A DNA stretch of 64,000 nt. Origin: Ovis canadensis (Eukaryota; Chordata; Mammalia; Artiodactyla; Bovidae). Every line of letters starts with the position of its first letter. Position 1 is the first letter of the stretch. The position numbers and the translations under genes were made by a program. The DNA is taken from positions 113,365,001 to 113,429,000 of the forward strand of contig NC_091246.1 of assembly GCF_042477335.2 (NCBI RefSeq), in the 5' to 3' direction. This document shows positions 18,676-46,260 of the stretch, one piece after another. Under the pieces are notes generated by a model, which saw nothing but the letters and a program-made list of their open reading frames with translations, had not been told where the DNA came from and made no database searches.

Positions 18676-21578
18676 GTTGTGGCAGTGTCATGGTTTTGAC
18701 TGGTGTCTCTGGTGCCGCTTTTGTCCTGGTTGCCACTGGTGTCTTGGATGTCATTTTGTCCTGGGTGCCAGTTATGTCTTGGCTGCCACTCTTGCCATGA
18801 GTGTAATGGGTGCAGCTCTTTTCTCAGGTCCCAATCTTGCCATTGTTGCAGCTCTTACCTTGGGTGTCATAAGTGCCGCTGGTGTCTTGGTTTTCATGAG
18901 TGCCGCTGGTGTCTCTGGTATCATAGGTGCCATTGATGTCACAGTTGCTGCTGGTGTCATGGGTGCCGCTGGGTTCTTGGGTGCCATCTTGTCCAGGGTG
19001 CCCTGGTGTCTTGGGTTCTGCCCTTATCCTGGGTGCCTTTCTTGCTGCAAGTGTCATGGGTGCAGCTGGTATCTCAGGTGCTGCTCATTTCCTGCGTGCC
19101 ACTGGTGTCTGGTTCCACTCTTGTCCAGGGTGCCCTGGTGTCTCGGGTGCTCCTATAGTCCTGGATGCCATTCTTGCCATGGGTGCTGTTCTTGCCACAC
19201 ATGTCATGGTGTGGCTGTTTTTTTCTGGTACTGCTCTTGCCCTGGGTGCTGCTGTTGTCTCTGGTGCAGCTCCTGCCATGTGTGCCACTAATGCTGCAAT
19301 TTTCACGAGTGTAGCTGTTGTCTCTGGTGCCACTCTTGTTCTGGGTGCCACTAGTGTCTCGGGGGCCAGTCTTGCCATGAGTGTCACAGAAGCGGCTGCT
19401 ACCTTTAGTGCCACTCTTGTGTGGGGTGCTTCTGGTGTCTCGGGGCTGTTCTTGCCATGTGTGCAGCTCTTGCCCTGAGTGTCAAGGGTGAGGCTGGTGT
19501 CTCTGTGCCGTACTTGTCCCCAGTTTCACTGGTATCTCGGGAGTCACTCTCTTCCTGGGTGCCGCTGGTCTCTTGGGTGCCCCCCTTGCCATGGTTTGCA
19601 GCTCTTGCTGGTAGTGTCACAGGTCCTGCTGGTGTCTCTTGTGCCGCTCTTGTCCTGGGTGCTGCTGGTGTTCTGGTTCCACTCTTGCAATGGGTGCTGA
19701 CTTATTGTGGGTGTCATGAGTGCAACTAGTGAATCGGATGCTGCTCTTCTCCTGGGTGCCACTGGTGTTTCGGGTATCACTCTTGTCACAGGTGCCAGTG
19801 TTGTCCCAGTTGTCACTCTTGTCATGGCTGTCCCTGGAGACTTTGGTGTCATTGGTGTCCCTAGTGCTGCTGGTGTCTCAGGTGCTGCTCTTGTCCCGGG
19901 TGCCACTGGTGACTCGGGTGCCCCTGTTTCCATGGGTGCCACTCTTTTCACGAGTGTCAGGAGTGCAGCTGTTATTTCTGGTCCTGCTCTTGACAAGGGT
20001 GCACCTCTTACCGTGGGTTTCATAAGTGCTGGTGGTGTCTCTGGTATCACAGGTGCCACTGATGTCACGGGTCCTGGTAGTGTCATGGGTGCCACTGGGT
20101 TCTTGGGTGCCATCTTGTCCAGCATTCCCCAGTGTCTTGGGTGCTGCTCTTGTCCTGGGGGCCATTCTTGCCATGGGAGCTGTTCTTATGGCAAGTGTCA
20201 CAGGTGGGGCTGGTGTCATGGGTTCCACTGGGATCTTGGGGGCCACTCTTATCCAGGTTTTCCCAGTGAGTGGTGTGCTCCTCTGTCCTGGGTGCCATTC
20301 TTGCCATTGGTGCCATTCTTGCCACAAGTGTCTCGGGTGTGGCTGGTGTCTCTGTTGCTGCTCTTTGCCTGGCTGCCACTGGTGTCTCTGTGACCATGCT
20401 TGTCCTGTGTGCCACTGGTGTGGCAGGTGCAACTATTGTGTTGGGTGCCGCTGGTGTCTCATGTGGCACTCTTGCCATGGAAGCCACTCTTTCCAAGAGT
20501 GTCAGGCGAGTGGCTGGTGTCTCTGGAGCCACTCTTGTCCTGGTTGCCACTGGTGTCTCGGGTTCTGCTCTGGCCGTGGGTGCTGCTATTGCCATGGGTG
20601 TCATGAGTGCTGCTGGTAATTCGGGTTCCACTCTTTTCTGGGTGCTGCTGGTGTTTTGGGTGATGCTCTTGCCACTGGTGCCGTGCTTGCCATGAGTTTC
20701 ACGAGTGTGGCTTTTGTCTCTGGTACTGCTCTTGTCTTGGGTGTCACACTCTCATGGGTTCCACTGGCATCCCAGGTGTCACTCTTGTCATGTCTCTCTT
20801 TGGTGTCTTTGTTTCTACTAGTCTCCCAGGTGTCTCTGTGTCACAGGTGCTCTTTCGATGGTTACCACTCTTGCCACAAGTGCCACAGGTGCCCTTGGTG
20901 TTTTAGGTACAGCTATTGCCATGTGTGCTGCTCTTGCTGTGGGTGTCATGAGTGCTGCTGGTGTCTTGGGTGCCGCTCTGTTCCCGGGTGCTGCTGGTGT
21001 TGTGGGTGCCCCTTTAGCGTGAGTGACATGGGTGCAGCTTGTGTCTCAGTTGCTGCTCCTGTCCTGGGTTCCACTAGTGTCTCGGGTGCCGCTGTTGCTG
21101 GGAGTGTTGTGGGTGCGGCTGGTAACTCGGGTGCTGCTTTTGTGCTGGGTGCTGATGTTGACTCAGGTGATGCTCTTGCCATGGGCCCCACCCTTGCCAC
21201 GAGTGTCACGGTTGTGGCTGGTGTCTCTGGTGCTGCTCTTGTCGTGGGTGCCACTGGTTTCTCGGCTTCTGCTTTGTCCTGGATGCCAGTGATGTCTCGG
21301 GTCTCACTCTTGCCATGGGTGCACCTTTTACCTTGGGTGTCATAAGTGCTGCTGGTGTCTTGGTTTTCATGAGTGCCGCTGGTGTCTCTGGTATCACAGG
21401 TGCCATTGATGTCACAGGTGCCGCTGGTGTCATGGGTGCCACTGGGTTCTCGTGTGCCATCTTGTCCAAGGTGCCCCAGTGTCTCGGGTGCTGCTCTTGT
21501 CCTGGGTGCCATTCTTGCCATGGGTGTGTTTCTTACCACAAGTGTCACGGGTGTGGCTGATGTCATGGGTGTTGCTGG
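18676..21578 (+). repeat. 18-bp minisatellite array, segment 1
   Basis: Two related 18-mers alternate: gtgccactcttgtcctgg and gtgccactggtgtctcgg (14 of 18 identical), forming a 36-bp dimer. The plus strand is strongly A-poor and T/G-rich. Because 18 is a multiple of three and the monomer lacks stops, several frames on both strands stay open for hundreds of bases. I do not recognise this family. The left edge is placed to within about 25 bp. Confidence 0.92.
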
Positions 21579-21597
21579 GGTCTCAGAGGCCACTCTT
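21579..21597. repeat. Left target-site duplication of the L1
   Basis: The 19-mer ggtctcagaggccactctt is repeated exactly at 24546-24564 on the other side of the L1. Confidence 0.92.
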
Positions 21598-21950
21598 CTT
21601 TTTTTTAAATTTTAACTTTATTTTACTTTACAATACTGTATTGGTCTTGCCATACATTAACATGAATCCACCACGGGTGTATACAAGCTCCCAATCCTGA
21701 ATCCCCCTCCCACCTTCCACCCCATAGCATCTCTCTGGATCATCCCCATGCACCAGCCCCAAGCATCCTGTATCCTGTATAGAACATAGACTGGCACTTC
21801 GTTTCTTACATGATAGTATGCATGTTTCAATGCCATTCTCCCAAATCATCCCACCCTCTCCCTCTCCCTCAGAGTCCAAAAGTCCGTTCTATACATCTGT
21901 GTCTCTTTTGCTGTCTCGCATACAGGGTCATATTACCATTTTTCTAAATT

Positions 21951-21952
<2 letters not shown>

Positions 21953-21992
<40 letters not shown>
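21953..21992. repeat. (AT)20 microsatellite inside L1
   Basis: Forty bases of pure AT alternation. Likely length-polymorphic. Confidence 0.97.
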
Positions 21993-21995
<3 letters not shown>

Positions 21996-22182
21996 AGTAT
22001 ACTGTATTGGTGTTCTTCTTTCTGGCTTACTTCACTCTGTATAATCGGCTCCAGTTTCATCCATCTCATTAGAAATGATTCAAATGTGTTCTTTTTAATG
22101 GCTGAGTAATACTCCATTGTGTATATCTTTCTTATCCATTCATCTGCTGATGGACATCTAGGTTGTTTCCATGTCCTGGCTA

Positions 22183-24182
22183 TTATAAACAGTGCTGCGA
22201 TGAACATTGGGGTACATGTGTCTCTTTCAATTCTGGTTTCCTCGGTGTGTATGCCCAGCATGGGATTGCTGGGTCATAAGGCAGTCCTATTTGCAATATT
22301 TTAAGGAATCTCCACACTGTTCTCCATAGTGGCTGTACTAGTTTGCATTCCCACCAACAGTGTAAGAGGGTTCCCTTTTCTCCACATCCTCTCCAGCATT
22401 TATTGCTTGTAGGCATTTGGATCGCAGCCATTCTGACTGGTGTGAAATGGTACCTCATTGTGGTCTTGATTTGCATTTCTCTAATAATGAGTGATGTTGA
22501 GCATCTTTTCATGGGTTTGTTAGCCATCCATATGTCTTCTTTGGAGAAGTGCCTATTTAGTTCTTTGGCCCAGTTTTTGATTGGGTCGTTTATTTTTCTG
22601 GAATTGAGCTGCGTAAGTTGCTTGCATATTTTTGAGATTAGTTGTTTGTCAGTTGCTTCATTTGCTATTGTTTTCTCCCATTCAGAAGCCTGTCTTTTCA
22701 CCTTACTTATAGTTTCCTTTGTTGTGCAGGAGCTTTTAATTTTAATTAGATCCCATTTGTTTATTTTTGCTTTTATTTCCAGTATTCTGGGAGGTGGATC
22801 ATAGAGGATCCTGCTGGGATGTATGTGGGAGAGTGTTTTGCCGATGTTCTCCTCTAGGAGTTTTATGGTTTCTGGTCTTACATTTAGATCTTTAATCCAT
22901 TTTGAGTTTATTTTTGTGTGTGGTGTTAGAAAGTGTTCCAGTTTCATTCTTTTACAAGTGGTTGACCAGTTTTCCCAGCACCACTTTTTAAAGAGATTGT
23001 CTTTACTCCATTGTATATTCTTGCCTCCTTTGTCAAAGATAAGGTGTCCATAGGTGTGTGGATTTATCTCTAGGCTTTCTATTTTGTTCCGTTGATCTAT
23101 ATTTCTGTCCTTGTGCCAGTACCATACTGTCTTAATGACTGTGGCTTTGTAGTAGAGCCTGAAGTCAGGCACGTTGATTCTTACAGTTCCATTCTTCTTT
23201 CTCAAGATTGCTTTGGCTATTCGATGTTTTTTGTATTTCCATACAAATCTTGAAATTATTTGTTCTAGTTCTGTGAAAAATACCCCTGGTAGCTTGATAG
23301 GGATTGCATTGAATCTGTAGATTGCTTTGCGTAGTATACTCATTTTCACTATATTGATTCTTCTGATCCATGAACATGGTATATTTCTCCATCTATTAGT
23401 GTACTCTTTGATTTCTTTCATCAGTGTTTTATAGTTTTCAATATATAGGTCTTTAGTTTCTTTAGGTAGGTATATTTCTAAGTATTTTATTCTTTGCAAT
23501 GGTGAATGGAATTGTTTCCTTAATTTCTTTTTCTACTTTCTCATTATTAGTGTATAGGAATGCAAGGGATTTCTGTGTGTTGATTTTATATCCTGCAACT
23601 TTACTATATTCATTGATTAGCTCTAGTAATTTTCTGGTGGAGTCTTTAGGGTTTTCCATGTAGAGGATCATGTCATCTGCAAACAGTGAGAGTTTTACTT
23701 CTTCTTTTCCAATTTGGATTCCTTTTATTTCTTTTTCTGCTCTGATTGCTGTGGCCAAAACTTCCAGAACTATGTTGAATAGTAGCGGTGAAAGTGGGCA
23801 CCCTTGTCTTGTTCCTGACTTTAGGGGAAATGCTTTCAATTTTTCACCATTGAGGATAATGTTTGCTGTGGGTTTGTCATATATAGCTTTTAATATGTTG
23901 AGGTATGTTCCTTCTATTCCTGCTTTCTGGAGAGTTTTTTTTTTTTATCATAAATGGATGTTGAATTTTGTCAAAGGCCTTCTCTTCATCTATTGAGATA
24001 ATCATATGGTTTTTATTTTTCAATTTGTTAATGTGGTGAATTACATTGATTGATTTGCAGATATTGAAGAATCCTTGCATCCCTGGGATAAAGCCGACTT
24101 GGTCATGGTGTATGATCTTTTCAATGTGTTGTTGGATTCTGATTGCTAGAATTTTGTTGAGAATTTTTACATCTATGTTCAT
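22183..24182 (-). pseudogene. L1 ORF2 (endonuclease/reverse transcriptase) C-terminal relic
   Basis: Three consecutive reverse-strand frames cover ORF2 in order. 23877-24182 holds the RT fingers/palm region (QVGFIPGMQ, then the [17 protein letters not shown] motif). 23462-23839 holds [15 protein letters not shown] and the catalytic FADD box. 22183-23499 holds the thumb and C-terminal region with a Cys/His-containing tail ([18 protein letters not shown]). One-base shifts near 23890 and near 23490 separate the frames. The endonuclease domain is lost by 5' truncation, so the product cannot work. In intact L1, ORF2 nicks DNA and reverse-transcribes its own RNA at the nick. Confidence 0.92.
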
Positions 24183-24545
24183 CAGTGATATTGGCCGGTA
24201 GTTTTCTTTTTTTGTGGCATCTTTGTCAGGTTTTGGTATTAGGGTGATGGTGGCCTCATAGAATGAGATTGGAAGTTTACCTTCCTCTGCAATTTTCTGG
24301 AAGAGTTTCAGTAGGATAGGTGTTAGCTATTGTGTAAACTTTTGGTAGAATTCAGCTGTGAAGCTGTCTGGACCTGGGCTTTGTTTGCTGGAAGATTTCT
24401 GATTACAGTTTCAATTTCCGTGCTTGTGATGGATCTGTTAAAATTTTCTATTTCTTCCTGGTTCAGTTTTGGGAAGTTGTACTTGTCTAAGAATTTTCCA
24501 TTTCTTCCACATTGTCCATTTTATTGGCATATAATCACTGATAGT

Positions 24546-24564
24546 GGTCTCAGAGGCCACTCTT
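24546..24564. repeat. Right target-site duplication of the L1
   Basis: Exact copy of the 19-mer at 21579-21597. Related sequence without an insertion is seen near 20240, 30507 and 40127. Confidence 0.92.
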
Positions 24565-27500
24565 ATCCAGGTTTTCCTGGTGACTCGAGTGCTCCTCTTG
24601 TCTCGGGTGTCATTCCTGCCATGGGTGTCATTCTTGGCACAAGAGTCTCAGGTGTGGCTGCTGCCTCTGTTGCCGCTGTTTGCCTGGCTGCCACTGGTGC
24701 CTCTGCTGCCTCTCTTGTCCTGGGTGCCACTGGTGTGTTGCGTGTCACTGTCTCAAGGGTGCCACTGGTGTCCCAGATGTCACACATGTCATGGCTGTCC
24801 CTGGTTTCTTTGGTGCTACTGGTGTCCTGGGTATCTCTGGTGTCACTGGTGCTGCTCATGCCATGGTTGCTGCACTTGCCACAAGTGCCAGTGGTGTCAC
24901 TTTGTCTCGGAGGCCTCTCTTGCTGTGGGTGCTGCTCTTGCCCTGTGTCAAGAGGGCTGCTGGTGTCTCGGGTGCTACTTTTTTCCTGGGTGCTGCTGGT
25001 GTCTCAGGTGTCACTCTCATGGGTGCCACTGGTTTCCTGTGTGTTACTCTCGTCATGGCTCTCTCTGGTGTCTTTGGTGCCACTGGTGTCCCAGGTGTAT
25101 CTGGTGTCAAAGCTGCTGTTCTTTCCATGGATGCCTCTCTTGTCACGGGTGCCATGGTTACCGCTGGTGTCTTGGTGAAGCTCCTGCCATGTGTGCCACT
25201 ATTGCTGCTAGTGTCACAGGTGCGGCTGTTGTTTCCGGTGCCGCTTTTGTCCTCGTTGCCACTGGTGTCTCGGGTGCCGCTCTTGCCATGAGTGTCACAG
25301 GAGCAGCTGCTACCTCGAGTTCTGCTCTTGTTTGGGATACTGCTGGTGTCTCGGAGGCCTTTCTTGCCATGGGTGCAGCTCTTACTGTGAGTGTTATGGG
25401 TGCGGCTAGTGTCACTTCTTCCACACTTGTCCCTGGTGTCGCTGGTGTCTTGGGTGTCGCCTTTGTCCTGAGTACCGTTGGTGTCTCGGGTGACGCTCTT
25501 GCCTTGGGTGCAATGCTTGCCGCAAGTGTCATGGGTGCAGCTGATGGCTTTGTTGCCGCTCCTGTCCTGGGTACCATTGGTGTCTCGGCTGCTGCTTTTT
25601 CCTAGGTGCCGCTGGTGTCTTGGGTGCCGCTCTTTCCATGGGTGTCACTCTTGCCGCGAGTGTCATGCATGCAGCTGGTCTCTCTGGTGCAGCTTTTGTC
25701 CTGCGAGCCACTGGTGTCCTGGGTGCTGCTCTTGTCCTGGGTTCCACTGGTGTCTCAGTTGTTGCTCCCTTACGGGTGCCGTTGATGTCTCAGGTACCAC
25801 TCTTGTCCTGGGTGCCGCTGGTGTCTTGGGTGCCTCTATTGTCATTGCTGCCCCTGGAGTCTTTCTTGCCACTGGTGTCCCAGGTTCCGCTTGTGTCTCT
25901 GTTGCTGCTCTTGTCCTGGGTGCTGCTGGTGTCTCTGTTTCTGCTCTTGCCCCATATGCCAATTTTGCCATGAGTGTCCCGGGTGCAGCTGGCGTCTCAG
26001 ATGCCGCTCCTGTCCTGGGTGCCACTCGTGTCCTGGGAACTGATTTTATCTTGGTGCCACTGGTGTCTCGGGTGCCACTCTTGCCATGTCATGTGTGCGG
26101 CAGCTACCTCAGGTGCTGCTCTTGTGTGGGGTGCTGCTGGTGTCTCCAAGGCCGTTCTTGCCATGGGTACCACTCTTAACGTGAGTGTCATGGGTATGGC
26201 TTGTGTCTTTGGTGCCGCTCTTGACTTAGATGCCACTGGTGTCTCAGGTGCCGGTCTTGTCCTGGGTGCCACTGTTGTGTCGGGTGCTGCTCTTGTCCTG
26301 GGTGCCACTGGTGTCTCAGTTGCCACTCTTGCCATCGTGCTGCCATTGCTCAGGTGTCACAGGTGCCACTGGGTCTCGGGTGTCACATGTGCAACTGGTG
26401 TCTTTGGTTTTGCTCTTGTTCTGGGTGCCACTCTTTCCTCAAGCGTCACAGGTGCCACTTTTGTGTTGGGTGCACTCTTGTTCCAGGTGTTGCTGGTGAC
26501 TTGGGTGCCAGTGGTGCCGCTGGTGTCTTGGGTGCCACTCTTGACCTGGGTGCCACTGATGTCTTGGGTGCCACTCTTGTCCTAGGTGCCCTTGGTGTCT
26601 TGAGTGCTGCTCTTTTCCTGGCTGCCATTCTTGCCATGGGTGCTGTTCTTGCCGCAAGTGTCATGGGTGCCACTCTTTTCCTGGTTGCTGCTGGTGTCTC
26701 GGGTTCCCCTCTGGCCATGGGTTCTGCTATTGCCGTGGGTGTCATGAGTGCTAGTGGTGATTCGGGATCCGCTCTTGTCCTGGGTGCTGCTGCTGTCTCG
26801 GGTGATGCTCTTGCCATGGGTGCCATGCTTTCTGCGAGTGTCACGGGTGTGGCTGGTGTCTCTGGTACTGCTCTTGTCCTGGGTGCCACTGGTGGCTTGG
26901 GAGCCACTCTTGACCTGGGTACAGATGGTGTCTTGGGTGCCATTCTTATCGTGGGTGCCCTTGGTGTCTCGGGTGCCGCTCTTGTCATGGATGCCTCTTC
27001 TGCTGCAAGTGTTATGGGTAGTGCTGGTGTCTCGGGTGCCACTCTTGTCCTGGGTACTGCTGGTGTCTCGGGTGCTGCTCTTGACCTGGGTACCGCTGCT
27101 GTGATGGGTGCCTCTCTTGCTGCGTGTGTTATGGGTGTGGCTGGTGTCTTTGGTGCTGCTCTTGTCCTGGGTGCCACTGGTGTCTCATGTGCCACTCTTG
27201 ACGTGGGTGTCATGAGTGCTGCTGATAATTCTGGTGCTGCTCTTGTCCTGGGGGCCACTGGTTTCTTGGGTGCCACTCTTGCCGTGGGTGCCCCTCTTGC
27301 CACAAGTGTCATTGGTGCAGCTGGTGTCTCAGGTGCCACTCCTTTCCTGGGTGCTACTGGTGTCCAGGGATGCCGCTCTTGTTCTGGGTGTCACTGAGTT
27401 CTCGGGTGTCACTCTTGCCATGGGTGCTGCTCTTGCCATGAGTGTCCCAGGTGCAGCTGTGAATCTGTTGCCGCTCTTGTTCTGGTTGCCACTTGTGTTG

Positions 27501-27910
27501 GATGTTACTCTCTCACGGGTGTCACTTTTGTCCTGGCTGTCCCTGGTGTCTTTGGTGTCCCTGGTGTCCCGGTTGTTTCTGTTGTCTCAGGTGCTGCTCT
27601 TGCCATGGTTGCTACTCTTGTGACGATGCCAAAGAAGCCGCTGGTTTCTTGGGTGCAGCTCTTGCCATGGGTGCTTCTCCTGCCACAAGTGCCACAGGTG
27701 CCACTGTGTCTCACATACCACTCTTGCCATGGGTAAGAGTGCCAAGAGCTACTGGTGTCTCGGGTGCCGCTCTTTCCCTGGGTGCCGCTGGCATCTCGGG
27801 TGTCACTGTCTCATGGGTGCCACTGGTGTCCTGGGTGTCACTGCTATCATGACTCCCCTGGTTTCTTTGGTGCCCCTGGTGTCCCGGGTGTATCTGATGT
27901 CACAGGTGCT
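24565..27910 (+). repeat. 18-bp minisatellite array, segment 2
   Basis: Continuation of the 36-bp dimer array beyond the L1. It includes a distinctive block at about 27495-27720 (containing gacgatgccaaagaagccg) that recurs near 38774-38950 and 45206-45440, marking a larger repeat period. Confidence 0.92.
27905..27910. repeat. Left target-site duplication of LTR copy 2
   Basis: ggtgct, repeated exactly at 29188-29193. Confidence 0.85.
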
Positions 27911-29187
27911 TGCTGGGATCCAGCCACGGTGGATCCAGGGAATTCGAAGGGGAGACAGCGTCAGCAATTAGGAAAGAATTATTTAATTAGAGATATAAAC
28001 AGATTAAGAAAGAATAGTGTAGTGGAGAAAATAGAGGAGAAAATAAGCTGAAATTCCTTGGTTTACATAGAAAGCCAATAAAGCCTCAAGACAAGGAACT
28101 TGCACCATCTGTGTAGGCCACAGGTGCCCACTTGAATAGCAGAGGGTGTCCCACCTTGGGCTCCCTCTCACGTGGTCTTAGAAGCCCAGGCAAATAAATA
28201 GACACAGTGAGCCTCTATGCCCCAGATGAGAATTCAGCCTGAAAAGGGAGAATAAGAAAAGAACGACATGGGGGAGCCAAGCATTGGAGCAAGACCCACA
28301 ACTTTATTTTCAAAGGCAGCTTATATAACCCAAGCTGTACATAAAGAAATAATGGAATACGCAGAATTATGCAAGGACAGCAGTCCTGGCCCTTATTGAG
28401 ACCAGGCTTTCTTTTTTGCATACCTTCCCGTAGACAAAAGGTCTCCGGTGATTTACATTATCTTCTGGCCAAGAGGCTTGTTAACATTTTTATGGCTCTC
28501 TTCCTAGATAAATGTCTATCAACCAGAAAACTCATTTTCCCCATCACCCTCAAAGTACTAAATAAGGTTACATTCCTGTAGAACAAAGGTGCAGTGGGTT
28601 ATAACAAAGAAAGTACTTAACTCAAAGATCTAATGTTGCTAATGCCAGGGCTACTACCTGTTTTTTTCTACATACCAACTATGTCAACAAATAAAAGATA
28701 TGAAAACTTGGCAGCAAGTATTGGCTCAACAATGAAACCCTTAATCAGTCCTATTCTAATGATTTTGACTCCTCAGAAGGCCCTACATTCCTAGGATGTT
28801 TTTTAAGCTTCCTGTTCCTCTCGTGGTCAGGAGGATGTAAACAATCACATGCATAGCTGTAAGAGTCTGGATAGAAGCTGTCAGGTAGGCTAGAAAGCCA
28901 TCAGAGGGGTTTTTGGATTGAAACACTCTTATTATGCCCAGGAGACTTATTATCCGAAGCTCTAAATTAACTTTTTCCAGAAAAAGGTGGTGAGGGGACA
29001 GCCCCCTGTTACTGTCAGAGGAGTTGGTGAAAGGCATAATGTAATAAAGCGGACAGACTCTATTTTTGGGGTGGATGCTCGAGAAGGTCCAGGGGGGTTC
29101 CCTCTAGGCCTGATCTCGCCTTTGCCTGTCAGCCCTCTTCCTCATGACCGTTGCAATGGGCGGGATTCCACATGCTGGCTCCCAGCA
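27911..29187 (-). mobile_element. Solo LTR, BTLTR1-like (copy 2), inside the 18-bp array
   Basis: The plus strand reads tgctgggatcc at the left and ctcccagca at the right, with exact 6-bp ggtgct duplications on both sides. On the minus strand the element is colinear with copy 1 (33-1345). The antisense polyadenylation signal tttatt is at 28303-28308 and a TATA-like ttatataacc at about 28321. Length is 1,277 bp. No internal region remains. Transcription from it would run leftward into the 18-bp array. Confidence 0.9.
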
Positions 29188-29615
29188 GGTGCTGCTCTTG
29201 CCACAGTTGCTGCTCTTGCCACCAGTGCCATGGGTGCTGCAGGTGCCTTGGGTGCAGCTCTTTCCACGAGTGTCACGGGTGTGGCTGTTGTGTCTCGTGC
29301 CGCTCTTGTCCTGGGTGCAACTGGTATCTCAGGTGCAAACCTTGCCGTGAGTGTCATGGGTGCAGCTGCCTCCTCTAGTGCTGCTTTTGTGCGGGGTGCT
29401 GCTGGTGTCTCAGAGCGCATTCTTGCCATGGGTGCCACTCATGCCCCAAGTGTCAAGTTTGTGGCTGGTGTCTCTGGTGCCACTCTTGTCCCCGGTGTCG
29501 CTGGTGTCTCGGGTGCCGCTCTTGTCCTGTGTGCCACTGGTATCTTGGCTTCTGCTCTTGTCCTGGGTGACATTGGTGTCTTGGGTGACGCCCTTGCTCT
29601 GGGTGCCACACTTGC
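29188..29615 (+). repeat. 18-bp minisatellite array, segment 3
   Basis: Short array piece between two LTRs. Its right part matches 39150-39310, which shows the sequence before the next LTR inserted. Confidence 0.9.
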
Positions 29616-30080
29616 TGTTATGCCCAGAGTCCGAGTCCACAAAACTGAGAGAATAAGACATCCATAGCAATGCAAAAGCATGAAGGGGTTTTATTTCTAG
29701 CTCAAGCTAGGGCTCCTGCCACATCCAATGCAGCTGAGTGGAGCAAGGATCCCCGAGCCCAGATTTACAGCAGTATTTGTAGGTTTTAGAACAGAGAGTT
29801 GGCAAGGGCTGATTAGCTGCAGGAGTGTCCTAGTATTTACTAATTGGCTAATCTTTATTGGCTGCAGGGGTTTCCTGGTATTTACTAATTGGCTAATCTT
29901 TATTGGCTGCAGAGGGATGTCTTTTACATCCTGATAAACTCAAACCAGGTTATGGGGAGTATGCTGATTAGCCAAGTCCTGGCATCCATGGGGATGACCT
30001 CACTGGGCAATGACTCAGCCTTTCCCGTGAATCCTACCTTAGTCCCTGAAGCCTATCATGGCATTTGTTAGGTCCCAACA
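29616..30080 (-). mobile_element. Short LTR of a second family (ERV1-like), minus orientation
   Basis: A 465-bp block of non-array sequence runs from TG at 29616 to CA at 30080. The flanks are ttgc (29612-29615) and ttac (30081-30084), a 4-bp duplication with one change; 4 bp is usual for gammaretrovirus-like ERVs. An antisense AATAAA (tttatt) is at about 29690-29695. An internal repeat of about 49 bp, with core atttactaattggctaatc, occurs twice near 29831 and 29880. The array copy near 39310 reads straight through this site, giving an empty-site comparison. Confidence 0.82.
29831..29928. repeat. Internal tandem duplication in the short LTR
   Basis: Two copies of a unit containing ggctaatctttattggctg, about 49 bp apart. 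U3 enhancer-type duplication is a plausible reading. Confidence 0.8.
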
Positions 30081-36000: not shown

Positions 36001-39000
36001 TCTTGTGTGGGGTGCCACTGGTGTCTCAATGGCCGTTCTTGCCATGGGTGAAACTCTTGCCGCGAGTGTCACAGGTGCGGCTGGTGTCTCTGTTGCCACT
36101 CTTGTCCTGGGTGCCACTGGTGTCACAGATGTTGCTTTTACCTGGATTCCACTGGTGTTTCAGGGGGCACTCTTGCCATGAGTGACACAGGAGCAGCTGC
36201 TACCTCGAATGCCCCTCTTGTGTGGGGTGCCGCTTTTGTCTCAAAGGCCGTTCTTGCCATGGGTGAATCTCTTGCTGCATGTGTCATGGGTACGGCTGGT
36301 GTCTCTGGTACCACTCTTGCCCCGGGTGTAATGGATGAGGCTGGTACCTTGGGTGCTGCTCTTGAGTGGGTGCCACTGGTGTCTTGGGTGCCCCTCTTGT
36401 CCTCAGTGCCGTGGGTGTCTCTGGTGCCACTCTTGTCCTGGGTGCCCTTGGTGTCTCGGGTGCTGCTCTTTTCCTGGCTGCCATTCTTGCCATGGGTGCT
36501 GTTTTTGCTGCAAGTGTCATGGGTGCAACTTGTGTCATTGGTGCCGCTCTTGCCATGGGTGCCGCTCTTGCCACAAGTGTCATGGGTGCAGCTGTTGTCT
36601 CCGGTTGCCACTCTTATGGGTTGTGCTCTTGCCATGGGTGTCAGAAGCTCTGCTGGTGTCCTGAGTGCCACTGGTGTTTCAGGGGATGCTGATTTAATTG
36701 GTACCACTGTTGTCTCAGGTGCGCTCGTGCCATGGGTGCTGCTCTAGCCGTGGGTGTCAATAGTGCTGCTGGTGTCACTGGTGCTGCTCTTGGCCTGGGT
36801 GCCGGGGGTGTCTCAAGTGTAGCTCTTGTCCTGGGAGCCACTGGTGTCTCTGGTGCCACTGTTGTCTTGGGTTCCACTCGTGCCTTGGTTGCCTCTACTG
36901 GCATCGGTTTGCAGCACTTGCTGTGACTCTCATGGGTGCTGCTAGTGTCATGGGTGCCACTGTTATCTCGGGTGCCACTCTTGTCCTGGGTGCCCTTGGT
37001 GTCTCGAGTGTTGTTCTTGTCCTGGCTGTCATTCTTGTGATGCGTGCTGCTTTTGCCCCAAGTGTCATGGGTGCATTGGTGTCTCTGGTGCTGCTCTTGC
37101 CGTGGGTGCTGCTCTTGCTTTGAGTGTCATGGGTGAGGTCGGTACATTGGCTGCCACTTTTCAGCTGGGTGCCACTGGTGTCTCTTGTGCCACTCTTGTC
37201 CTGAGTGCCACTGGTGTTTTGGGTGCTGTGCTTGTCCTTGGTGCCAGTGGTGTCTCAGGTGTCGTGCTCTTCCTGGGTGCTGCAGGTGTCTCGGGTGCCG
37301 CTATTGCCATGATTTTGCAGCTCTTGCCGTGAGTCTCATGGTTCCCACTGATGTCTCATGTGCCACTCTTGTCCTGGGTGCCACTGGTTTTCGGGTGCCA
37401 CTCTTTCCATGGGTGCTGACTTGCCATGGGTGTCATGAGTGCAGCTGGTGATTCGGGTGCCACTCTTGTCTAGGGTGCTCTGGTGTTTCGGGTATCACTC
37501 TTGTCATAGGTGCCAGTGGTGTCGCGGGTGTCACTCTTGTCATGGTTGTCCCTGGAGTCTTTGTTGCCACTGGTGTCCCGGGTGGTGCTCTTGTTTTGGG
37601 TGTCACAATTGCCATGAGTGCCACCCTTGCCACGAGTGTTACAAGTGCGGCTGGTGTGTCTCGGGTCCTGCTCTTGCCACGGATGCTGCCCTTACCATGG
37701 GTGTCATAAGTGCCACTGATGTCTCGGGTGTCATGAGTGCCACTGGTGTCGTTGGTGTCACAGGGGCCACTGATGTCATGGGTGCCAAGGATGTTTCGAG
37801 TGTCACTCTTGTCACAGATGCCAATGGTGTCCTGGTTGTCTCTGTTGTCTTGCTATCCCTGGAGTCTTTGTTGCCACTGGTGTCCTGGGTGCCGCTGATG
37901 TTTTGGGTGCCGCTCTTGTCATGGCTGCTGCTGGTGTCTCCTTTGCCACTCTTGCCATTAGTGCCACTCTTGCCACAAGTGTCATGGGCGTGGCTGGTGT
38001 CTCGGGTCCTGCTCTTACCATGGTTGTCATTAGTGCCGCTGATGTCTCGGGTGTCATGAGTGCCACTGATCTCGCTGGTATCACAGGGGCAACTGATGTT
38101 ACAGGTTCTGCTGGAATCATGGGTGCTGGTGGGGTCTTGGGAGCCATCTTGTCTAGGGTGCCCCAGTGTCTCGGGTGCTGGTCTTGTCCTGGGTGCCACT
38201 GGTGTCTCGGGTGCCACTCTTGTCGTGGGTGCCCTTGGTGTCTTGGGTGCTCCTCTTTTCCTGGCTGCCATTCTTGCCATGGGTGCTGTTCTTGCTGCAA
38301 GTGTCAGGGTTGTGGCTGGTGTCTCTGCTTGCCATTCTTCCCGTGGGTTGTGCTCTTACCGTGGGTGTCAGAAGTGCTGCTGGTGTCTCGGGTGTCCTGA
38401 GTGCCACTGGTGTTTCGGGTGTTACAGGTGCCACTGATGTAATGAGTGCTGCTGATTTAATGGGTGCCACTGGTGTCTCGGGTGCCACTCTTGTCCTGGG
38501 TGCCCTTGGTGTCTTGTCCTTGGGTGCTGCTCCCATCCTGGGTGCCATCCTTGTTATGTGTGCCATTCTTGCCGCAAGTGTCATGGGTACAGCTGTTGTC
38601 TCGGGTGCTGATCTTTTCCTGGGTGCCACTGGTGTTCAGGGTGCTGCTCTTGTTCTGGGTGTCACTGTGTTCTTGGGTGCCACTCTTGCCATGTGTGCCG
38701 CTCTTGCCATGAGTGACACGGGTGCAGCTGGTGAATCTGTTGCTGCTCTTGTTCTGGGTGCTCGTTTTGTTGGGTGTTACTCGCTCACAGGTTCCACGGG
38801 TGTCCTGAGTGTCACTTTTTTCGTGGCTGTTCCTGGTGTCTTTGGTGTCCCTGGTGTCCCGGTTTTCTGTTGTCTCAGGTGGTGCTCATGACATGGTTGC
38901 CTCCCTTGCAACGATGCCAAGGAAGCCGCTGGTTTCTTGGTTGCAGCTCTTGCCATGTGTGAAGCTATTTCCACAAGTGTCATGGGTGTGGCTGGTGTGT

Positions 39001-42000
39001 CTCATGCCACTCTTGTCCTGGGTGCCACTGGTGTCTCAGGTGCAAACCTTGTGAGTGTCATGGGTGCTGCTGCTACCACGGGTACCACTCTTGTGCGGGG
39101 TGCTGCTGGTGTCCCAGAGGCCATTCTTGCCATGGGTGCTGGTCATGCTGTGAGTGTCAAGGGTGTGGCTGGTGTCTATGGTGGCACTCTTCTCCGCAGT
39201 GTCACTGGTGTCTCGGGTGCCGCTCTTGTCCTGTGTGCTGCTGGTATTTTGGCTTCTGCTCTTGTCCTGGGTCCTATTGGTATCTCGGGTGACACTCTTG
39301 TTTTGGGTGCCACACTTACCGCGAGTGTCACTGGTGCAGCTGATGTCTATGTTACCGCTCCTGTCCTAGGTCCACTGGTGACTTGGCTGATGCTTTGTCC
39401 TGGGTGCCATTGGTGTCTTGTGTGCCACATGTGCCATGGGTGCTGATGATGTCTCAGGTGCAGCTCCTGCCATGTGTGCCACTGTTGCCACGAGTGTCAC
39501 AGATTCGACTTGTGTCTCATGTGCCACTCTTTTCCTGGGTGCCACTGGTGTTGGGTGCCACTCTTGTCATGGGTGCCTCTGGTGTCTCGGTTGCTGCTCT
39601 TGTCCTGTGTGTCACTGGGTTGTCAGGTCCCCTTTTGCCATGGTTGCTGCTTTGCCATGAGTGTCAATGGTGCAGCTGGTTTCTCTGTTGCCTCTCTTCA
39701 CCTGGGGGCTACTCTTAGGGTGAGTGTCACTGGTGCCAATAGTGTCATTGGTGTCGCTCTTGTCACCAGTGCCACTGGCATCTCGGGTGCTGCTCTTGCC
39801 TTGTGTGCTGATGTTGATCGGGTGTCATGGGTGCCACTATTGTCTTAAGTGTTCCGTATGCCACTGGTGTCTTGGGCACTGCTCTTGTGTTGGGTGCCAC
39901 TGGTGTCTCGGAGACCATTATTGCCGTGGGTGCCATGCTTGCCACGAGTTTTACGGGGGTGACTGATGTCTCTGTTGCCGCTCCTGTCCTGGGTGCCACT
40001 GGGACTTGGCTGCCACTTGTTCCCTGGTGCTGCTGGTGTCCTGGGTGCCTCTATTGCCATGGATTTGCAGCTCTTGCCATGAGTCTCATGGGTTCTGCCG
40101 ATGTCATGGGTGCCACTGAGTTCTCAGGGGCCACTCTTCTCCAGGTTTTCCCAGTGTCTCGTGTTCTCTTCTTGTTCTGAGTTCTGTTCTTGCCATGGGT
40201 GCCGTTCTTGTGTCAAGTGTCACGGGTTCAGCTGGTGTCTTGTGTGCCGCTCTTTTCCTGGGTGCCCTTGGTGTCTCTGGTGTTGTTCTTGTCCTGGCTG
40301 CCATTCTTGCCATGGGTGCCATTTTTGACCCAAGTGTCACGGGTGCACCTGGTGTCTCTGGTGCCGCTCTTGCGCCTGGGTGCTGCCGGTGTCTCAGTTG
40401 TAGCTCTTGTCCTGGGAGCCACTGGTGTCTCGGGTGCCACTCTTGTCCTGGATTCCACTGGTGTCTAAGGTGCTGCTCTTGACTTGTGTGTCATGAGTGC
40501 TGCTGGTTTTCCTGGTGCTGTTTTCCTCCTGGGGTCCACTGGTGACTCGGCTGACACTTTGTTCTGGGTGCCATTGGTGTCTCTGGTGCCGCTCTTGCCA
40601 TGGTTGCCACTCTTGCCGCAGGTGTCACAGGTGTGGCAGGTATCTCGGGTGCTGCTCTTGAGCTGAGTGCCGTGGGTGTTTCTGGTGCCTCTCTTTTCCT
40701 GGGTGCCACTGGTGTCTCGGGTTCCTCTCTTTTCCTGAGTGCCACTGGTGTCTCGGGTGTCGCTCTCTTCCTGGCCGCCACTGGTGTCTCGGGTGGCGCT
40801 ATTGTCCTGGGTGCCGCTGGTACTTGTGTGCCTCTATTGGCATGGGTTTGCAGCTCTTGCCGCAAGTCTCACGGTGCTGCTGGTGTCATGGTTGCCACTG
40901 TTATCTCGGGTGCCACTCTTGTCCTGCGTGCCCTTGGTGTCTCGGGTGTTGTTTTTCTCCTGGCTGCCATTCTTGCCATGTGTGCCATTTTTGCCCCAAG
41001 TATCACGGGTGTAGATGGTGTCTCTGGTGCTGCTCTTGTCCTGGGTGCGGCTGTTGTCTCTGGTGCTGCTCTGGTCCCGGGTTCCACTGGTGTCTCAGGT
41101 GCTGCTCTTGACTTGGGTGTCATGAGTGCTGCTGTTTTTCTGGTGCTGCTTCTCTTCAGGGCTACACTGGGGTCTTGGGTGCCGCTTTTGTTCTGGGTGT
41201 CACTGGTGTCTCGGGGCCCCTATTGCCATGGACTTGCAGCTCTTGCCGCAAGTGTCATGGTTCCCGCTGGTGTCTCTTGAGCCACTTTTGTCCTGGGTGA
41301 TGCCATTGTTTGGGTGCTGCTTTTGAAATGGGTGCTGACTTGCTGTGGGTATCATGAGTGCACCTGGTGAATTGGGTGCCACTCTTGCCCTGGGTGCCGC
41401 TGGGTTCTCGGGTGCTGCTCTTATCATGAGTGCCCCTTTGCCACGAGTGTCACGGTTGCAGCTCGTATCTCTGATGCGACTCTTGTCCTGTGTGCTGTTG
41501 GTGTCTTGGGTATCACTCTTTTCATGGCTGTCCCTCATGTCTTTGGTGCCCCTGATGTCCCAGTATCTCGGGTGTCACAGATGCTGCTCTTGCCAATGTT
41601 GCCGTCTTGCCACAAGTGCCATGGGTGCCACTGTGTGTCGGGTGCTGCTCTTGCCATGTGTGCTGCTCTTGCTGTGGGTGTCATGAGTGTTGCTGGTATC
41701 TCTGGTGACCCTCTTTTCTTGGGTGCCACTGCTCTCTCAGGTATCACTCTCTCATGGGTGCCACTGGAGTCCCCAGTGACACTGTTGCCATTTCTCTCCC
41801 TTGTTTCTGTTGCCTCGTGTATATCTGATGTCACAGGTGCTGTTCTTGCCATGGGTGACACTCTTGCCACGAGTGCCACCTGTGTGGCTGGTGTCCTGGG
41901 TGCCGCTGGGGTCTCGGTTGCCACTCTTATCTAGAGTGTCCCAGTGTCACAGGTGCTCCTTTTGTCCTGGGTGCCATTCTTGCCATGGGTGCCATTCTTT

Positions 42001-45000
42001 GCATAAGTGTCATGGGTGAGGCTGTTGTCTCTTGTACCAGTCTTTTCCTGGGTTCCACTTGTGGCTTGGGTGCTGCTCTTGCCCTGGGTGCTGCTGATGT
42101 CTCAGGTGCAGCTCCTACCATGTGTGCCGCTATTGCTGCGAGTATCATGAGTGTGGCTTTTGTCTCTGTTGCCACTCTTGTCCTGGGTGCCACTGATGTC
42201 ACAGGTGCCACTTTTATCTAGATTCCACTGGTGTTTCAGGAGGCACTCTTGCCATGAGTGACACAGGAGCAGCTGCTACCTCAAGTGCCACTCTTGTGTG
42301 GGGTGCCACTGTTGTCTCAAAGGTCGTTCTTGCCATGGGTGAAACTTGCTGTGAGTGTCACGGGTGCAGCTGGTATCTGTGATACTGCTCTTGCCCCGAG
42401 TTTAATGGATGAGGCTGGTATCTCGGGTGCCACTCGAGTGGGTGCCGCTGGTGTCTCTGGTGGCCGTCTTGTCCTCAGTGCCACTGGTCTTGGGTGACCT
42501 TCTAGTCCTTGATGGCACTGGTGTCTCGGGTGTCGCTCACTCCCTGGGTGCTGCTGGTGTCTCAGGTGCCGCTCCTGCCCCAGGTGTAATGGATGAGTCT
42601 GGTAACTTGGGTGCCACTCTTGAGTGGGTGCCACTGTTGTCTTGGATGCCCCTCTTGAGTGTTATGGTGGTCTCGGGTGCCACTCTTTTCCTGGGTGCCC
42701 TTGGTGTCTCGGGTGCTGCTCTTTTCCTGGCTGCCATTTTTGCCATGGGTGCTGTTCTTGCCACAAGTGTCATGGGTGCAGCTGGTATCGTGGGTGCCAT
42801 TCTTGCCATGGGTGCCACTTTTGCCCCAATTGTCATGGGTGCACCTGGTGTCTCTGGTGTGGCTCTTGGCCTGGGAACTGCTGGTGTCTCAGGTGCCGCT
42901 CTTTTCCTGGGTTCCACTGGTGTCTAAGGTGCCACTCTTGACTTGTGTGTCATGAGTGCTGCTGGTTTTCCTGGTGCTGCTTTTCTCCTGGGGTCCACTG
43001 GTGACTAGGCTGATGCTTTGTCTGGGGTTCCACTGGTGTCTCTGGTGCTGCTCTTACAATGGGTGCTGCTCTTGCTGTGAGTGTCACGGGTGCGGCAGGT
43101 ATCTTGGGTGCTGCTCTTGAGCTGGGTGCCACTGGTGTCTCATGTGCCGCTCTTTCCTGGGTGCCAGTGGTGACTCATGTGTCACTCTCTTTCTGGCCAC
43201 CACTGGTGTATCGGGTGCCACTATTGTCCTCGGTGCTGCTGGTGTCTTATGTGCCTCTATTGGCATGGGTTTGCAGCTCTTGCTGCGAGTCTCAAGGGTG
43301 CTGCTTGTGTCATGGGTGCCACTGTTATCTCGGGTGCCACTCTTGTCCTGAGTGCCCTTGATGTCTTAGGTGTTGTTCTTGTCCTGGCTGCCATTCTTAC
43401 CATGGGTGCCATTTTTGCCCCAAGTGTCATGGGTGCAGTTGGTATCTTGGGTGTAGCTCTTGTCCTGGGAGCCGCTGGTGTCTTGGGTTCCCCTCTTGTC
43501 CTAGGTTTCACTGGTGTCTCAGGTGGCGCTCTTGATTTGGGTGTCACGAGTGCTATTGCTTTTTCTGGTGCTGCTTCTCTCCAGGGCTCCACTGGAGTCT
43601 TGGGTGCCACTCTTGTCCTGGATGCCACTGGTGTCTTGGTGCCCCTATTGCCATGGGTTTGCAGCTCTTGCCACGGGTGTCACGGTTCCCACTGGTGTCT
43701 CTTGAGCCGCTTTTGTCCTGGGTGATGCTGGTGCTCAGGTGCCGCTCTTGACATGGGTGCTGATTTGCTGTGGGTATCATGAGTGCACCTGGTGAATTGG
43801 GAGCCGCTCTTGCTCTGGGTGTCGCTGGTGTCTCTGTTGCCACTCTTGCCCTGGGTGTGGCTCTTGCCTTGAGTCTCACGGGTGAGATTGGTACCTCACA
43901 TGCCACTTTTCAGCTGGATGCCACTGGTATCTCTTGTGCCACTCTTTCCTGGGTGCCGCAGGTGTCTCGGGTGCCACTATTGCCGTGGTTTTGCAGCTCT
44001 TGCCACGAGTCTCATGGGTCCCGCTGATGTTTCATGTGCCACTCTTGTCCTGGGTGCTGCTGGTGTTCAGGTGCCACTCTGGTCTTGGGTGCTGACTTGC
44101 CATGGGTGTCATGAGTGCAGCCGGTGATTTGGGTGACACTCTTGTCTAGGGTGCCACTGGTGTTTCGGGTATCACTCTTGTCACAGGTGCCAGTGGTGTC
44201 ACGGGTGTCACTCTTGTCATGGCTCTCCCTGGAGTCTTTGTTGCCACTGGTGTTCCAGGTTCCACTGGTGTTTCAGGTGCCACCTTTTCCATGGGAACCG
44301 CTCTTTCCATGGGTGCCGCTCTTGCCATGAGTGTCATGGGTGTGGCTGGTGTCTCGGGTCCTGCTCTTGCCATGGGTGCTGCCCTTACTCTGGGTGTCAT
44401 AAGTGCTGCTGATGTCTTGGGTGTCATGAGTGCCACTGGTTTTGCTCGTTTCACAGAGGCCACTGATGTCATGGGTTCCGTGGGTGTTTCGGGTATCACT
44501 CTTGTCACAGATGCCAGTGGTGTCTCGGGTGTCACTCTTGTCCTGCTGTCCCTGGAGTCTTTGTTGCCACTCGTGTCCTGGGTGCTGCTTTTGCCATGGG
44601 TGCCCCTTTGCTGTGAGTGTCATAGTTGTAGCTCATATCTCTGCTGCCACTCTTGACCTGGGTGCTGCTGGTCTCATGGGTGCCACAGTTGTCCTGAGTG
44701 CCCTTGGTGTCTCAGGTGCTGCTCTTTTCCTGGTTGCCATTCTACCATGGGTGCTGTTCTTGCCAAAAGTGTCACGGGTGCAGCTGGTGTCTCTGGTTGC
44801 CGCTCTTCTCAAGGGTTGTGCTCTTACCATGGGTGTCAGAAGTGCTTCTGGTGTCTCAGGTGTTACAGGTGCCACTGGTGTAATGGGTGCTGCTGATTTA
44901 ATGGGTGCCATTGGTGTCTCGGGTGCCACTCTTGTCCTGGGTGCCCTTGGTGTCTTGGGTGCTGCTCCTGTCCTGGGTGCCATCCTTGCTATGGGTGCCA

Positions 45001-46260
45001 TTCTTGCCGTAAGTGTCACGGGTGCAGCTGGTGTCTCGGGTGCCGCTCTTGTCCTGGGTGCCACTGGTGTCCAGGATGCCACTCTTGTTCCGGGTGTCAT
45101 TGTGTTCTCGGGTGCCACTCTTGCCATGGGTGCTGCTCTTGCCATGAGTAACTTGGGTGCAGCTGGTGAATCTGTTGCTGCTCTTGTTCTGGGTGCCCCT
45201 TGTGTCGGGTGTTGCTCTCACGGGTGCCACTGGTGTCCTGGGTGTCACTATTGTCATGGCTGTCCCTGGTGTCTTTATTACCACTGGTGTCCAAGTTGTT
45301 TCTGTTGTCTCAGATGCTGCTCTTGCCATGGTTGCCACCCTTGCGATGATGCCAAGAAGCTGCTGGTTTCTTGTGTGCAGCTCTTGCCATGGGTGCCTCT
45401 CCTGCCACAAGTGCCATGACTGCCACTGTGTCTCACGTTCTGCTCTTGCTGTGGGTGCTGCTTTGGCCATGGGTGTCAAGAGTGCTGCTGCTGTCTCGGG
45501 TGCTGCTCTTTTCCTGGGTGCCAATGGTGTCTCGGGTGTCACTTTCTCATGGGTGCCACTGGTGTCCTGGGTATCACTGTTGTCATGACTCCCCTGGTTT
45601 CTTTGATGCCCCTGGTGTCCTGGGTGTATCGGCTGTCACAGGCTCTTGCCATGGCTGTCACTTTTGCCACGGATGCTGCTGGTGTCTCGGGCACAGCTCC
45701 TGCCATGTGTGAAGCTATTTCCACAAGTGTCATGGGCGCAGCTGGTGTGTCTTGTGCCACTCTTGTCCTAGGTGCCACTGGTGTCTCAGGTGCAAAACTT
45801 GTCGTGAGTGTCAAGAGTGCGGCTGCTACCTCAGGTGATGCTCTTCTGTGGGGTGCTACTTGTCGCAGAGGCCATTCTTGCTATGGGTGCCAGTCATGCT
45901 GCTAGTATCAAGGGTTTGGCTGGTGTCTCTGGTGGCACTCTTGTCCCCAGGGTCACTGGTGTCTCGCGTGCTGCTCTTGTCCTGTGTGCTGCTGGTATCT
46001 CGGCTTCTGCACTTGTCCTGAGTGCCATTGATGTCTCCGGTGCACTCTTGCTTTGGGTGCCACACTTACTGCGAGTGACACTGGTGCAGATGATATCTCT
46101 GTTACCACTCCTGTCCTAGGTCCACTGGTGACTTGGCTGACGCTTTGTCCTGGGTGCCACTGGTGTCTCGGGTGCTGCTTTTGTCATGGGTGCCACTCTT
46201 GCAACGAGTGACACGGGTGCTGCTGATGTTTTGGGTGCAGCTCCTGCCATGTGTGCTGCT
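30081..46260 (+). repeat. 18-bp minisatellite array, segment 4 (largest, uninterrupted)
   Basis: 16.2 kb of the 36-bp dimer array without transposon insertions. Variant blocks recur at long range. One containing ggagcagctgctacctcgag occurs near 32665, 35973 and 36190. One containing gatgttgatcgggtgtca or gatgttgattgggtgtca occurs near 30822, 33277 and 39808. The tract at about 37.4-39.4 kb recurs at 44.1-46.1 kb with offsets rising from about 6.44 to 6.75 kb. No single frame is open throughout and no start, splice or signal features suggest a gene. Confidence 0.92.
37400..46130 (+). repeat. Large higher-order duplication within the 18-bp array
   Basis: Matching landmarks fix two copies. tgttacaggt followed by ctgctgatttaatgggtgcc occurs at 38420 and 44861 (offset 6,441). 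ctgtcctaggtccactggtg occurs at 39361 and 46111 (offset 6,750). The offsets differ by whole small repeats, as expected from slippage inside the array after duplication. The first copy is about 37.4-39.5 kb, the second about 44.1-46.13 kb. Confidence 0.75.

What the first reader, a model, noticed from the sequence alone, without database searches (positions are those of the whole stretch)
18676..46260. A 27.6-kb block of an 18-bp/36-bp minisatellite that matches no family I know
Seen: alternating 18-mers gtgccactcttgtcctgg and gtgccactggtgtctcgg tiling about 23 kb once transposons are removed. Known: the ruminant satellites I can name have 23-, 31- or 46-bp subrepeats or unrelated longer units. 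Inference: this may be an undescribed pericentromeric satellite, or a local expansion of limited range.
Basis: partly seen in the sequence, partly recalled or inferred. Interest (0 to 1): 0.8.

Follow-up and report, generated by a model that had tools for sequence, protein, structure and literature searches.

The report
Sheep centromere-edge 18-base repeat family
A 23-kb block of a worn 18-base repeat sits at the edge of a sheep centromere; it is a small, apparently unreported family of non-coding repeats found at two centromere edges, and it may have grown from a short repeat near a gene exon.

Summary
In detail: 22.9 kb of a diverged 18-bp repeat (9-bp sub-period, two unit classes) fill window 18.68-46.26 kb, interrupted by an L1-like and two LTR-like inserts. 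The genome (probably Ovis; bighorn inferred) places the window at the p-arm edge of the C2 centromere. Genome-wide patterns put 90 of 93 exact matches (145 of 149 with up to one mismatch) in three arrays: this one, a 4.6-kb array 15 kb outside the window, and a 35.7-kb array on C22 directly between satellite I and non-satellite DNA. The 4.6-kb array is also present in domestic-sheep and argali-hybrid assemblies, inside "hypothetical proteins". It is not the 22-bp or 31-bp caprine unit and shows no coding frame. The same repeat, scoring like the satellite itself under a model trained on the satellite, occurs as a 0.4-kb array beside a thrombospondin-1 (ADAMTS-type) exon on C18, with ~1-kb relatives in duplicated fragments on C9. 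I propose that this old minisatellite seeded the satellite; that step is inferred, since the C2/C22 arrays lack its flanks. No listing or passage I saw reports it, but Repbase/Dfam could not be searched. New member of a known kind.

The parts
18676..21597 (+). 18-bp array, first piece
   Evidence: model score 0.45-0.62 per base in pieces wholly inside; units
21598..24545 (-). L1-like insert (poly-T end on the left) with a 19-bp target-site duplication of array sequence
   Evidence: identical 19-mer at 21579-21597 and 24546-24564 and nowhere else on the + strand of the window; L1 label is by eye
24546..27910 (+). 18-bp array, second piece
27911..29187 (.). solo-LTR-like insert, TG...CA ends, GGTGCT on both sides (a common word of the array, so weak as a target-site duplication)
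   Evidence: read by eye; not tested against a repeat library
29188..29615 (+). 18-bp array, third piece
29616..30080 (.). second LTR-like insert, TGTT...AACA ends, with an internal 45-bp x2.2 repeat
   Evidence: by eye, not tested against a repeat library
30081..46260 (+). 18-bp array, main piece, with loose multi-kb internal duplications (offsets clustering near 2.4-3.5, 6-6.8 and 9.6-9.9 kb in the spliced array)
14020..18675 (+). left flank: satellite I-like DNA with a ~2,580-bp higher-order repeat (about 88% over the 600 bp compared)
46262..47689 (+). right flank: same satellite and same orientation as the left flank (84-85% identical)
47690..64000 (-). satellite I-like block in inverted orientation, ~789-bp monomers, with other repeats inserted

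Best explanation
This is a non-coding pericentromeric satellite of the sheep lineage, a low-copy family of at least three arrays (22.9, 4.6 and 35.7 kb) at, or about 30 kb outside, the boundary between centromeric satellite I and the chromosome arm on C2 and C22. It grew from a 9-bp motif to an 18-bp unit and then to a loosely alternating 36-bp pair. The two large arrays then grew by duplication of blocks hundreds to thousands of bases long within each locus, while point mutation, CpG loss and TE insertion eroded them. Its likely seed is the homologous minisatellite next to an ADAMTS-type TSP1 exon, carried by duplicated fragments on C18 and C9. Its likely role is none beyond inert pericentromeric DNA. 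Shown: position, copy number, lack of an open frame, more similarity within than between the two large loci, presence in other sheep assemblies, a homologous minisatellite. Inferred: the growth history, the seeding step, heterochromatic state, lack of function and the species name.
For: Position: window = C2:113365001-113429000. Single 2-kb samples show satellite I at C2 113.48-114.0 and 117.0 Mb, a 22-bp satellite at 114.7, a 702-bp satellite at 115.2 and 116.0, and none of these at 118.5 and 120 Mb. On C22 the contig starts with telomere repeats, satellite I is seen at 4.0, 9.0, 14.0 and 15.6 Mb, the array lies at 15.7528-15.7885 Mb and the 46 kb fetched beyond it are not satellite. Genome-wide pattern: 93 exact matches, 90 in the three arrays, backwards-pattern control 0; with up to 1 mismatch 148 forward + 1 reverse, 145 forward in the arrays. 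Mean best-match identity of 108-bp windows 0.80 and 0.82 within the two large loci against 0.73-0.74 between them. CpG o/e 0.26-0.27. Stops in all six frames of each long piece. Other sheep: proteins P0001, P0002 and P0003 map piece by piece and in order onto C2:113.344-113.356 Mb through the 4.6-kb array, mostly at 90-100% (lowest listed there 86-88%). Seed: the C18 minisatellite scores 0.51 per base under the C2-trained model (satellite arrays or 6-kb pieces of them 0.43-0.59; five control sequences -0.30 or lower on both strands), with both unit classes and CpG o/e 0.63; shared body and TSP1_ADAMTS domain E 1.9e-13.
Against: No piece of the C18/C9 body or right flank, apart from a SINE and repeat units, matched the fetched flanks of the C2 or C22 arrays, and a genome search with part of the body gave 19 matches, none on C2 or C22 (a lower bound). 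So descent rests on unit similarity alone, and the reverse direction is possible. C9 units fit less well (0.27-0.29 per base). The small array is no more similar within itself (0.74) than to the large ones (0.78-0.79), so locus-private duplication is shown for the large arrays only. One translated stretch reaches 25.9 bits for the Pfam collagen model, below its cut-off of 27.2. Chromatin state, transcription and CENP-A were not testable, and lack of function is an argument from absence.
Confidence: 0.8

Rival explanations
1. It is a satellite family already catalogued in Repbase or Dfam under a ruminant name, simply not discussed in papers.
For: Library-based repeat masking would cover it silently; Repbase and Dfam were not searchable here.
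Against: Goat centromere units are 816, 702 and 22 bp (passages); bovine satellites named in the passages I saw have 23- or 31-bp sub-repeats, or 73 bp on the cattle Y; the unit shows no relation to the 22-bp unit or a 31-bp motif; the terms 18 bp/36 bp were absent from the main texts where I searched them.
Confidence: 0.25
2. The C2/C22 satellite and the C18/C9 minisatellite arose independently, or the satellite was the source and seeded the exon-linked arrays.
For: No shared flanks; C9 arrays fit the satellite model less well than C18.
Against: The C18 array fits the satellite model as well as the satellite does, in both unit classes and in register. Array and body occur together in copies about 69-84% alike, so the minisatellite is old, and the C18 copy keeps more CpG.
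Confidence: 0.45
3. It is a decayed or active repeat-coding gene (mucin- or collagen-like).
For: 18 and 9 are multiples of three; open stretches up to 390 codons; three annotated 'hypothetical proteins' run through the 4.6-kb array; a collagen match just under the Pfam cut-off.
Against: Stops in every frame of each long piece at 7-46 per 1,000 codons and no protected frame (the 4.6-kb array was not counted); many 17- and 16-bp units break frame; the three proteins have no Pfam family and are pieced from many short stretches.
Confidence: 0.03
4. The array is a functional boundary element that limits spreading of centromeric chromatin.
For: It sits directly between satellite I and non-satellite DNA on C22 and inside the outermost satellite on C2.
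Against: Large arrays were found on two chromosomes only, units are not conserved (66% within class), and four single-strand pieces fold no better than shuffles.
Confidence: 0.05
5. Assembly artefact.
For: Repeat-rich centromere edges are hard to assemble.
Against: No Ns in the 264 kb compared; 854 of 1,026 full units are distinct and no 108-bp window of the big array has a copy above 96.3%; an L1-like insert has an exact target-site duplication; the 4.6-kb array recurs in annotated proteins of three other assemblies.
Confidence: 0.02

Closest known systems
Caprine SatIII (22 bp) and bovine 23-bp satellites
   Same: Short-unit satellite near the centromere; the goat paper places SatIII near centromere ends (PMC11579321, passages)
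   Different: Unit 22-23 bp; the 22-bp unit sampled on C2 shows no sequence relation to the 18-mer
Satellite I (816-bp caprine; 31-bp sub-repeats in cattle 1.715 and muntjac satellite IA, from PMC2760882 passages)
   Same: Adjacent to the array; satellite I-like DNA forms its flanks
   Different: Unrelated sub-repeat; 118 Mb on all goat autosomes and X (PMC11579321, passages)
Degenerate 18-bp minisatellite beside a TSP1_ADAMTS exon on C18 and its duplicates on C9 (this genome)
   Same: Same 9/18-bp unit and strand skew; C18 has both unit classes
   Different: 0.4-1.3 kb, embedded in a ~1.0-1.6-kb body absent from the C2/C22 flanks
Bighorn centromeric HOR with 20-bp monomer (PMC12747268, passages)
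   Same: Short-unit centromere repeat, perhaps of the same species
   Different: 20 bp plus dinucleotides, 31.12 Mb of the genome, higher identity between copies

Membership tests
Satellite DNA (pericentromeric) | Long head-to-tail tandem arrays of a short non-coding unit | tested here: met
Satellite DNA (pericentromeric) | Location next to the centromere | tested here: met
   the two large arrays abut satellite I-like blocks; the small one is about 30 kb outside
Satellite DNA (pericentromeric) | Heterochromatic, late-replicating or H3K9me3-marked | not testable with these tools
   only indirect: CpG o/e 0.26-0.27
Caprine SatIII / bovine 23-bp satellites | 22-23-bp unit of related sequence | tested here: not met
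   unit 18 bp; 11 of 60 shuffles of the 22-bp unit align as well; the 23-bp unit itself was not tested
Satellite I / 1.715 (31-bp sub-repeat) | 31-bp sub-repeat of related sequence | tested here: not met
   15 of 60 shuffles of a 31-bp motif read by eye from the flanks align as well; the flanks, not the array, belong here
Exon-linked (ADAMTS-type) minisatellite family | Same 18-bp unit in register, both classes | tested here: met
   C18; C9 copies are almost all of the second class and score 0.27-0.29
Exon-linked (ADAMTS-type) minisatellite family | Shared body or right flank beside the array | tested here: not met
Repeat-coding gene | One reading frame kept open | tested here: not met
   (three long window pieces and C22; the 430-bp third piece has one stop-free frame)
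Named ruminant satellite in Repbase/Dfam | Hit of the 18/36-bp consensus to a library entry | not testable with these tools
   libraries not available

The most novel reading that the evidence does not exclude
A satellite family caught with its seed still in the genome: an old minisatellite beside an ADAMTS-type TSP1 exon was copied without its flanks to two centromere edges and expanded from tens to about two thousand units. Argali may still carry the array at the end of an unfused 2p homologue (MJT46 contig of 120 Mb), which would date it relative to the sheep chromosome-2 fusion.
Probability: 0.4. Interest if true: 0.6.

Novelty: new member of a known kind. Interest (0 to 1): 0.42.

Why it matters
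Where satellites come from is mostly unknown because seeds are overwritten (general knowledge, not from a call). Here a plausible seed, intermediate-length copies (C18 about 9 to 25 units, the 9 by eye; C9 about 50-70) and full arrays (up to about 2,000 units) sit in one genome, so the model 'minisatellite becomes pericentromeric satellite' can be tested across ruminant assemblies. The array also marks a centromere edge on sheep chromosome 2, a fused chromosome, and it already appears in sheep annotation as hypothetical proteins.

Tried and rejected
Shared junction: I first thought that the C2 and C22 arrays join satellite I at the same monomer phase; direct alignment ended at about phase 178 (C2 left, some 15-20 bp before the array), 0 (C2 right) and 69 (C22), so I dropped it. 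A clean empty site: the flanks resume about 787 bp further along the 2,580-bp repeat, so it is not a simple insertion. Recent local slippage: unit identity hardly changes with distance (same class 0.669 two units apart, 0.65-0.67 further off). Secondary structure: four pieces, none folds better than shuffles. Other collections: a degenerate 36-mer pattern has 0 exact matches in viral contigs and genome contigs, but it has only 1 in the window itself, so this is a weak test; plasmids gave one match of 105 bp at 76% in Priestia (E 2e-9), which I take as chance. Minus-strand frame protein search: none. All three protein searches scored only the roughly 8,000 candidates sharing most words, so silence about other species means little. 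Muntjac paper '36-bp' lead: a probe length. Argali karyotype papers: nothing useful in the listings. Locating the four further matches: its list stopped before them; three outside places came. Whether the C18 exon lies in a complete ADAMTS/ADAMTSL gene: the family search did not complete.
Full report
OBSERVATION. The block is real. A two-class repeat model trained on the array gives 0.33 to 0.67 nat/base in 250-bp pieces wholly inside the array and -0.27 to -0.51 in pieces wholly outside it; 60 Markov-shuffled pieces reach at most -0.11. Autocorrelation peaks at 18 (0.51), 36 (0.48) and 9 (0.42) over a mean of 0.28. With the L1-like and two LTR-like inserts left out the array is 22,883 bp and about 1,303 units, 942 of them exactly 18 bp, others mostly 17, 9, 16 or 27 bp. 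The class consensuses are GTGCCRCTCTTGTCMTGG and GTGCCRCTGGTGTCTCGG; a unit is followed by the other class with probability 0.68. Full units are 77% identical to their class consensus and 66% to each other within a class; 862 of 1,034 are distinct in that run. The L1-like insert has an exact 19-bp target-site duplication of array sequence at 21,579 and 24,546, so it landed in an existing array.

WHERE IT IS. The window is C2:113365001-113429000 of a 2.974-Gb assembly of 42 contigs. Of 15 samples of 2 kb on C2 from 113.46 to 120 Mb, 8 match satellite I (113.48-114.0 and 117.0 Mb), 1 is a 22-bp satellite, 2 a 702-bp satellite and 4 none of these, including the last two (118.5 and 120 Mb). These lengths are the goat SatI/II/III lengths 816/702/22 (PMC11579321, passages). 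The array is therefore at the p-arm edge of the C2 centromere. It is embedded in plus-strand satellite I-like DNA (14.02-18.68 and 46.26-47.69 kb), after which the satellite is inverted. The size of C2 (255.7 Mb, a fused chromosome), the 2.97-Gb total, and 94.6-100% identity of the exon-like pieces outside the array to an Ovis aries protein (P0003) fit the Bighorn-T2T assembly (2.97 Gb, submetacentric chromosome 2; PMC12747268, passages); this identification is inferred.

THE FAMILY. A genome-wide degenerate pattern gave 93 exact matches: 64 on C2, 26 on C22, 3 elsewhere, backwards-pattern control 0; 64 and 26 agree with the local count. A longer pattern with up to one mismatch gave 148 forward and 1 reverse, of which 145 forward lie in the arrays; the other four were not located in that cut list. 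A 129-bp probe gave 161 matches; those listed are all on C2 and C22. The three arrays are the window's; C2:113,345,830-113,350,450 (4.6 kb, 264 units), about 15 kb outside the window and about 30 kb from the first satellite I-like DNA; and C22:15,752,770-15,788,492 (35.7 kb, 2,006 units, no insert seen), directly between satellite I and non-satellite DNA. All three are on the plus strand of their contigs. By 108-bp windows, best matches average 0.80 within the big C2 array and 0.82 within C22 but 0.73-0.74 between them: blocks duplicate within these two loci and are not recently exchanged. The small array does not show this (0.74 within itself, 0.78-0.79 to the large ones). Its best gapped alignments to each large array (66-67%) exceed those between the large ones (61%).

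OTHER SHEEP. A protein search with a translated array stretch found one annotated protein, and a second search with that protein two more: MJG53_003138 and MJT46_004516 (Ovis ammon polii x Ovis aries, contigs of 257.9 and 120.3 Mb) and R6Z07F_002708 (Ovis aries, 256.3 Mb). Their pieces map in order to C2:113.344-113.356 Mb, through the 4.6-kb array, most at 90-100% identity with the lowest listed pieces there at 86-88%; weaker or shorter matches fall in the other arrays, as expected for a repeat. They have no Pfam family and are best read as spurious gene models over satellite DNA. The small array is thus present in other sheep assemblies. The 120-Mb contig may be an unfused 2p homologue; that is a guess. 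A third protein search, with a minus-strand frame, found nothing.

THE POSSIBLE SEED. The three matches elsewhere are C9:36.840 Mb, C9:36.948 Mb and C18:37.058 Mb. All three carry 18-bp arrays preceded by a shared ~1.0-1.6-kb non-repeat body (C9 copies 82% alike, C18 to C9 about 70%). The C18 body holds a TSP1_ADAMTS domain (Pfam E 1.9e-13, above cut-off); exon limits and the host gene were not established. A genome search with 841 bp of the body found 19 matches (a lower bound), on C18, C9, C25, C15 and C11, some of them under 70 bp, none on C2 or C22. Of 7 body copies examined, 4 have an array that the satellite model recognises clearly (L049, L050, L051, L055), 2 have a short weak one (L052, L053) and the C25 copy has none. 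The C18 array scores 0.51 per base under the model trained on C2, like a 6-kb piece of the big C2 array (0.52) and above a 6-kb piece of C22 (0.43); C9 arrays score 0.27-0.29; five control sequences score -0.30 or lower on both strands. C18 has both unit classes (8 and 17 units), whereas C9 units are almost all of the second class (48 of 53 and 64 of 73). CpG o/e is 0.63 on C18, 0.42-0.53 on C9 and 0.27-0.28 in the satellites. I read this as an old exon-linked minisatellite that supplied units to the centromere edges. Against it: neither body nor right flank is found beside the C2 or C22 arrays, so the reverse direction or independent origin is not excluded.

FUNCTION. No frame is kept open in the three long window pieces or C22 (7-46 stops per 1,000 codons; the 430-bp third piece has one stop-free frame). 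A collagen model match stays below its cut-off. Four pieces fold no better than shuffles, units are not conserved, and large arrays were found on two chromosomes only. Inert pericentromeric DNA is the best supported reading.

KNOWN OR NOT. The unit is unrelated to the 22-bp unit and to a 31-bp motif read by eye from the flanks. Ten paper searches (several held tens to hundreds of papers of which only the best 6-20 were listed) and find-passages in PMC11579321, PMC12747268, PMC12663436, PMC11436988, PMC13024017, PMC10887555 and PMC2760882 (the terms differed, '18 bp' being searched in all but the last) show no 18/36-bp ruminant satellite; a search for a 15-base piece of the unit found 0 papers. 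I read passages only, no whole paper; supplements, Repbase and Dfam were not seen.

Noticed in passing
window 10998-11115 and 13012-13130, minus strand: Two diverged 5S rRNA copies 2.0 kb apart beside the centromere (Rfam 57.5 and 64.9 bits); the surrounding sequence looks duplicated by eye.
   Followed up: no
window 47,690: The satellite I-like DNA switches strand here: plus on the left (14.0-18.7 and 46.3-47.7 kb), minus on the right to about C2:113.452 Mb; an inversion boundary.
   Followed up: partly
window 14,020-18,675: Satellite I-like DNA with a ~2,580-bp higher-order repeat (about 88% over 600 bp), not a whole multiple of the ~790-bp monomer.
   Followed up: partly
C2:113,344,134-113,356,275 (loci L012-L014): Annotated sheep hypothetical proteins (MJG53_003138, MJT46_004516, R6Z07F_002708) run through the small satellite array; likely spurious gene models.
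   Followed up: yes
C18:37.057, 37.089, 35.69-35.70 Mb; C9:36.83-36.95 Mb; C25:20.78 and 21.26 Mb: A low-copy family of duplicated fragments (TSP1_ADAMTS-exon region on C18) with, in 6 of 7 copies examined, a minisatellite of variable length downstream.
   Followed up: partly
C22:1-2000 (L044) and samples to 15.6 Mb: Contig starts with (CCCTAA)n and 4 of 4 samples from 4.0 to 15.6 Mb are satellite I, so C22 looks acrocentric with a very long satellite block.
   Followed up: no
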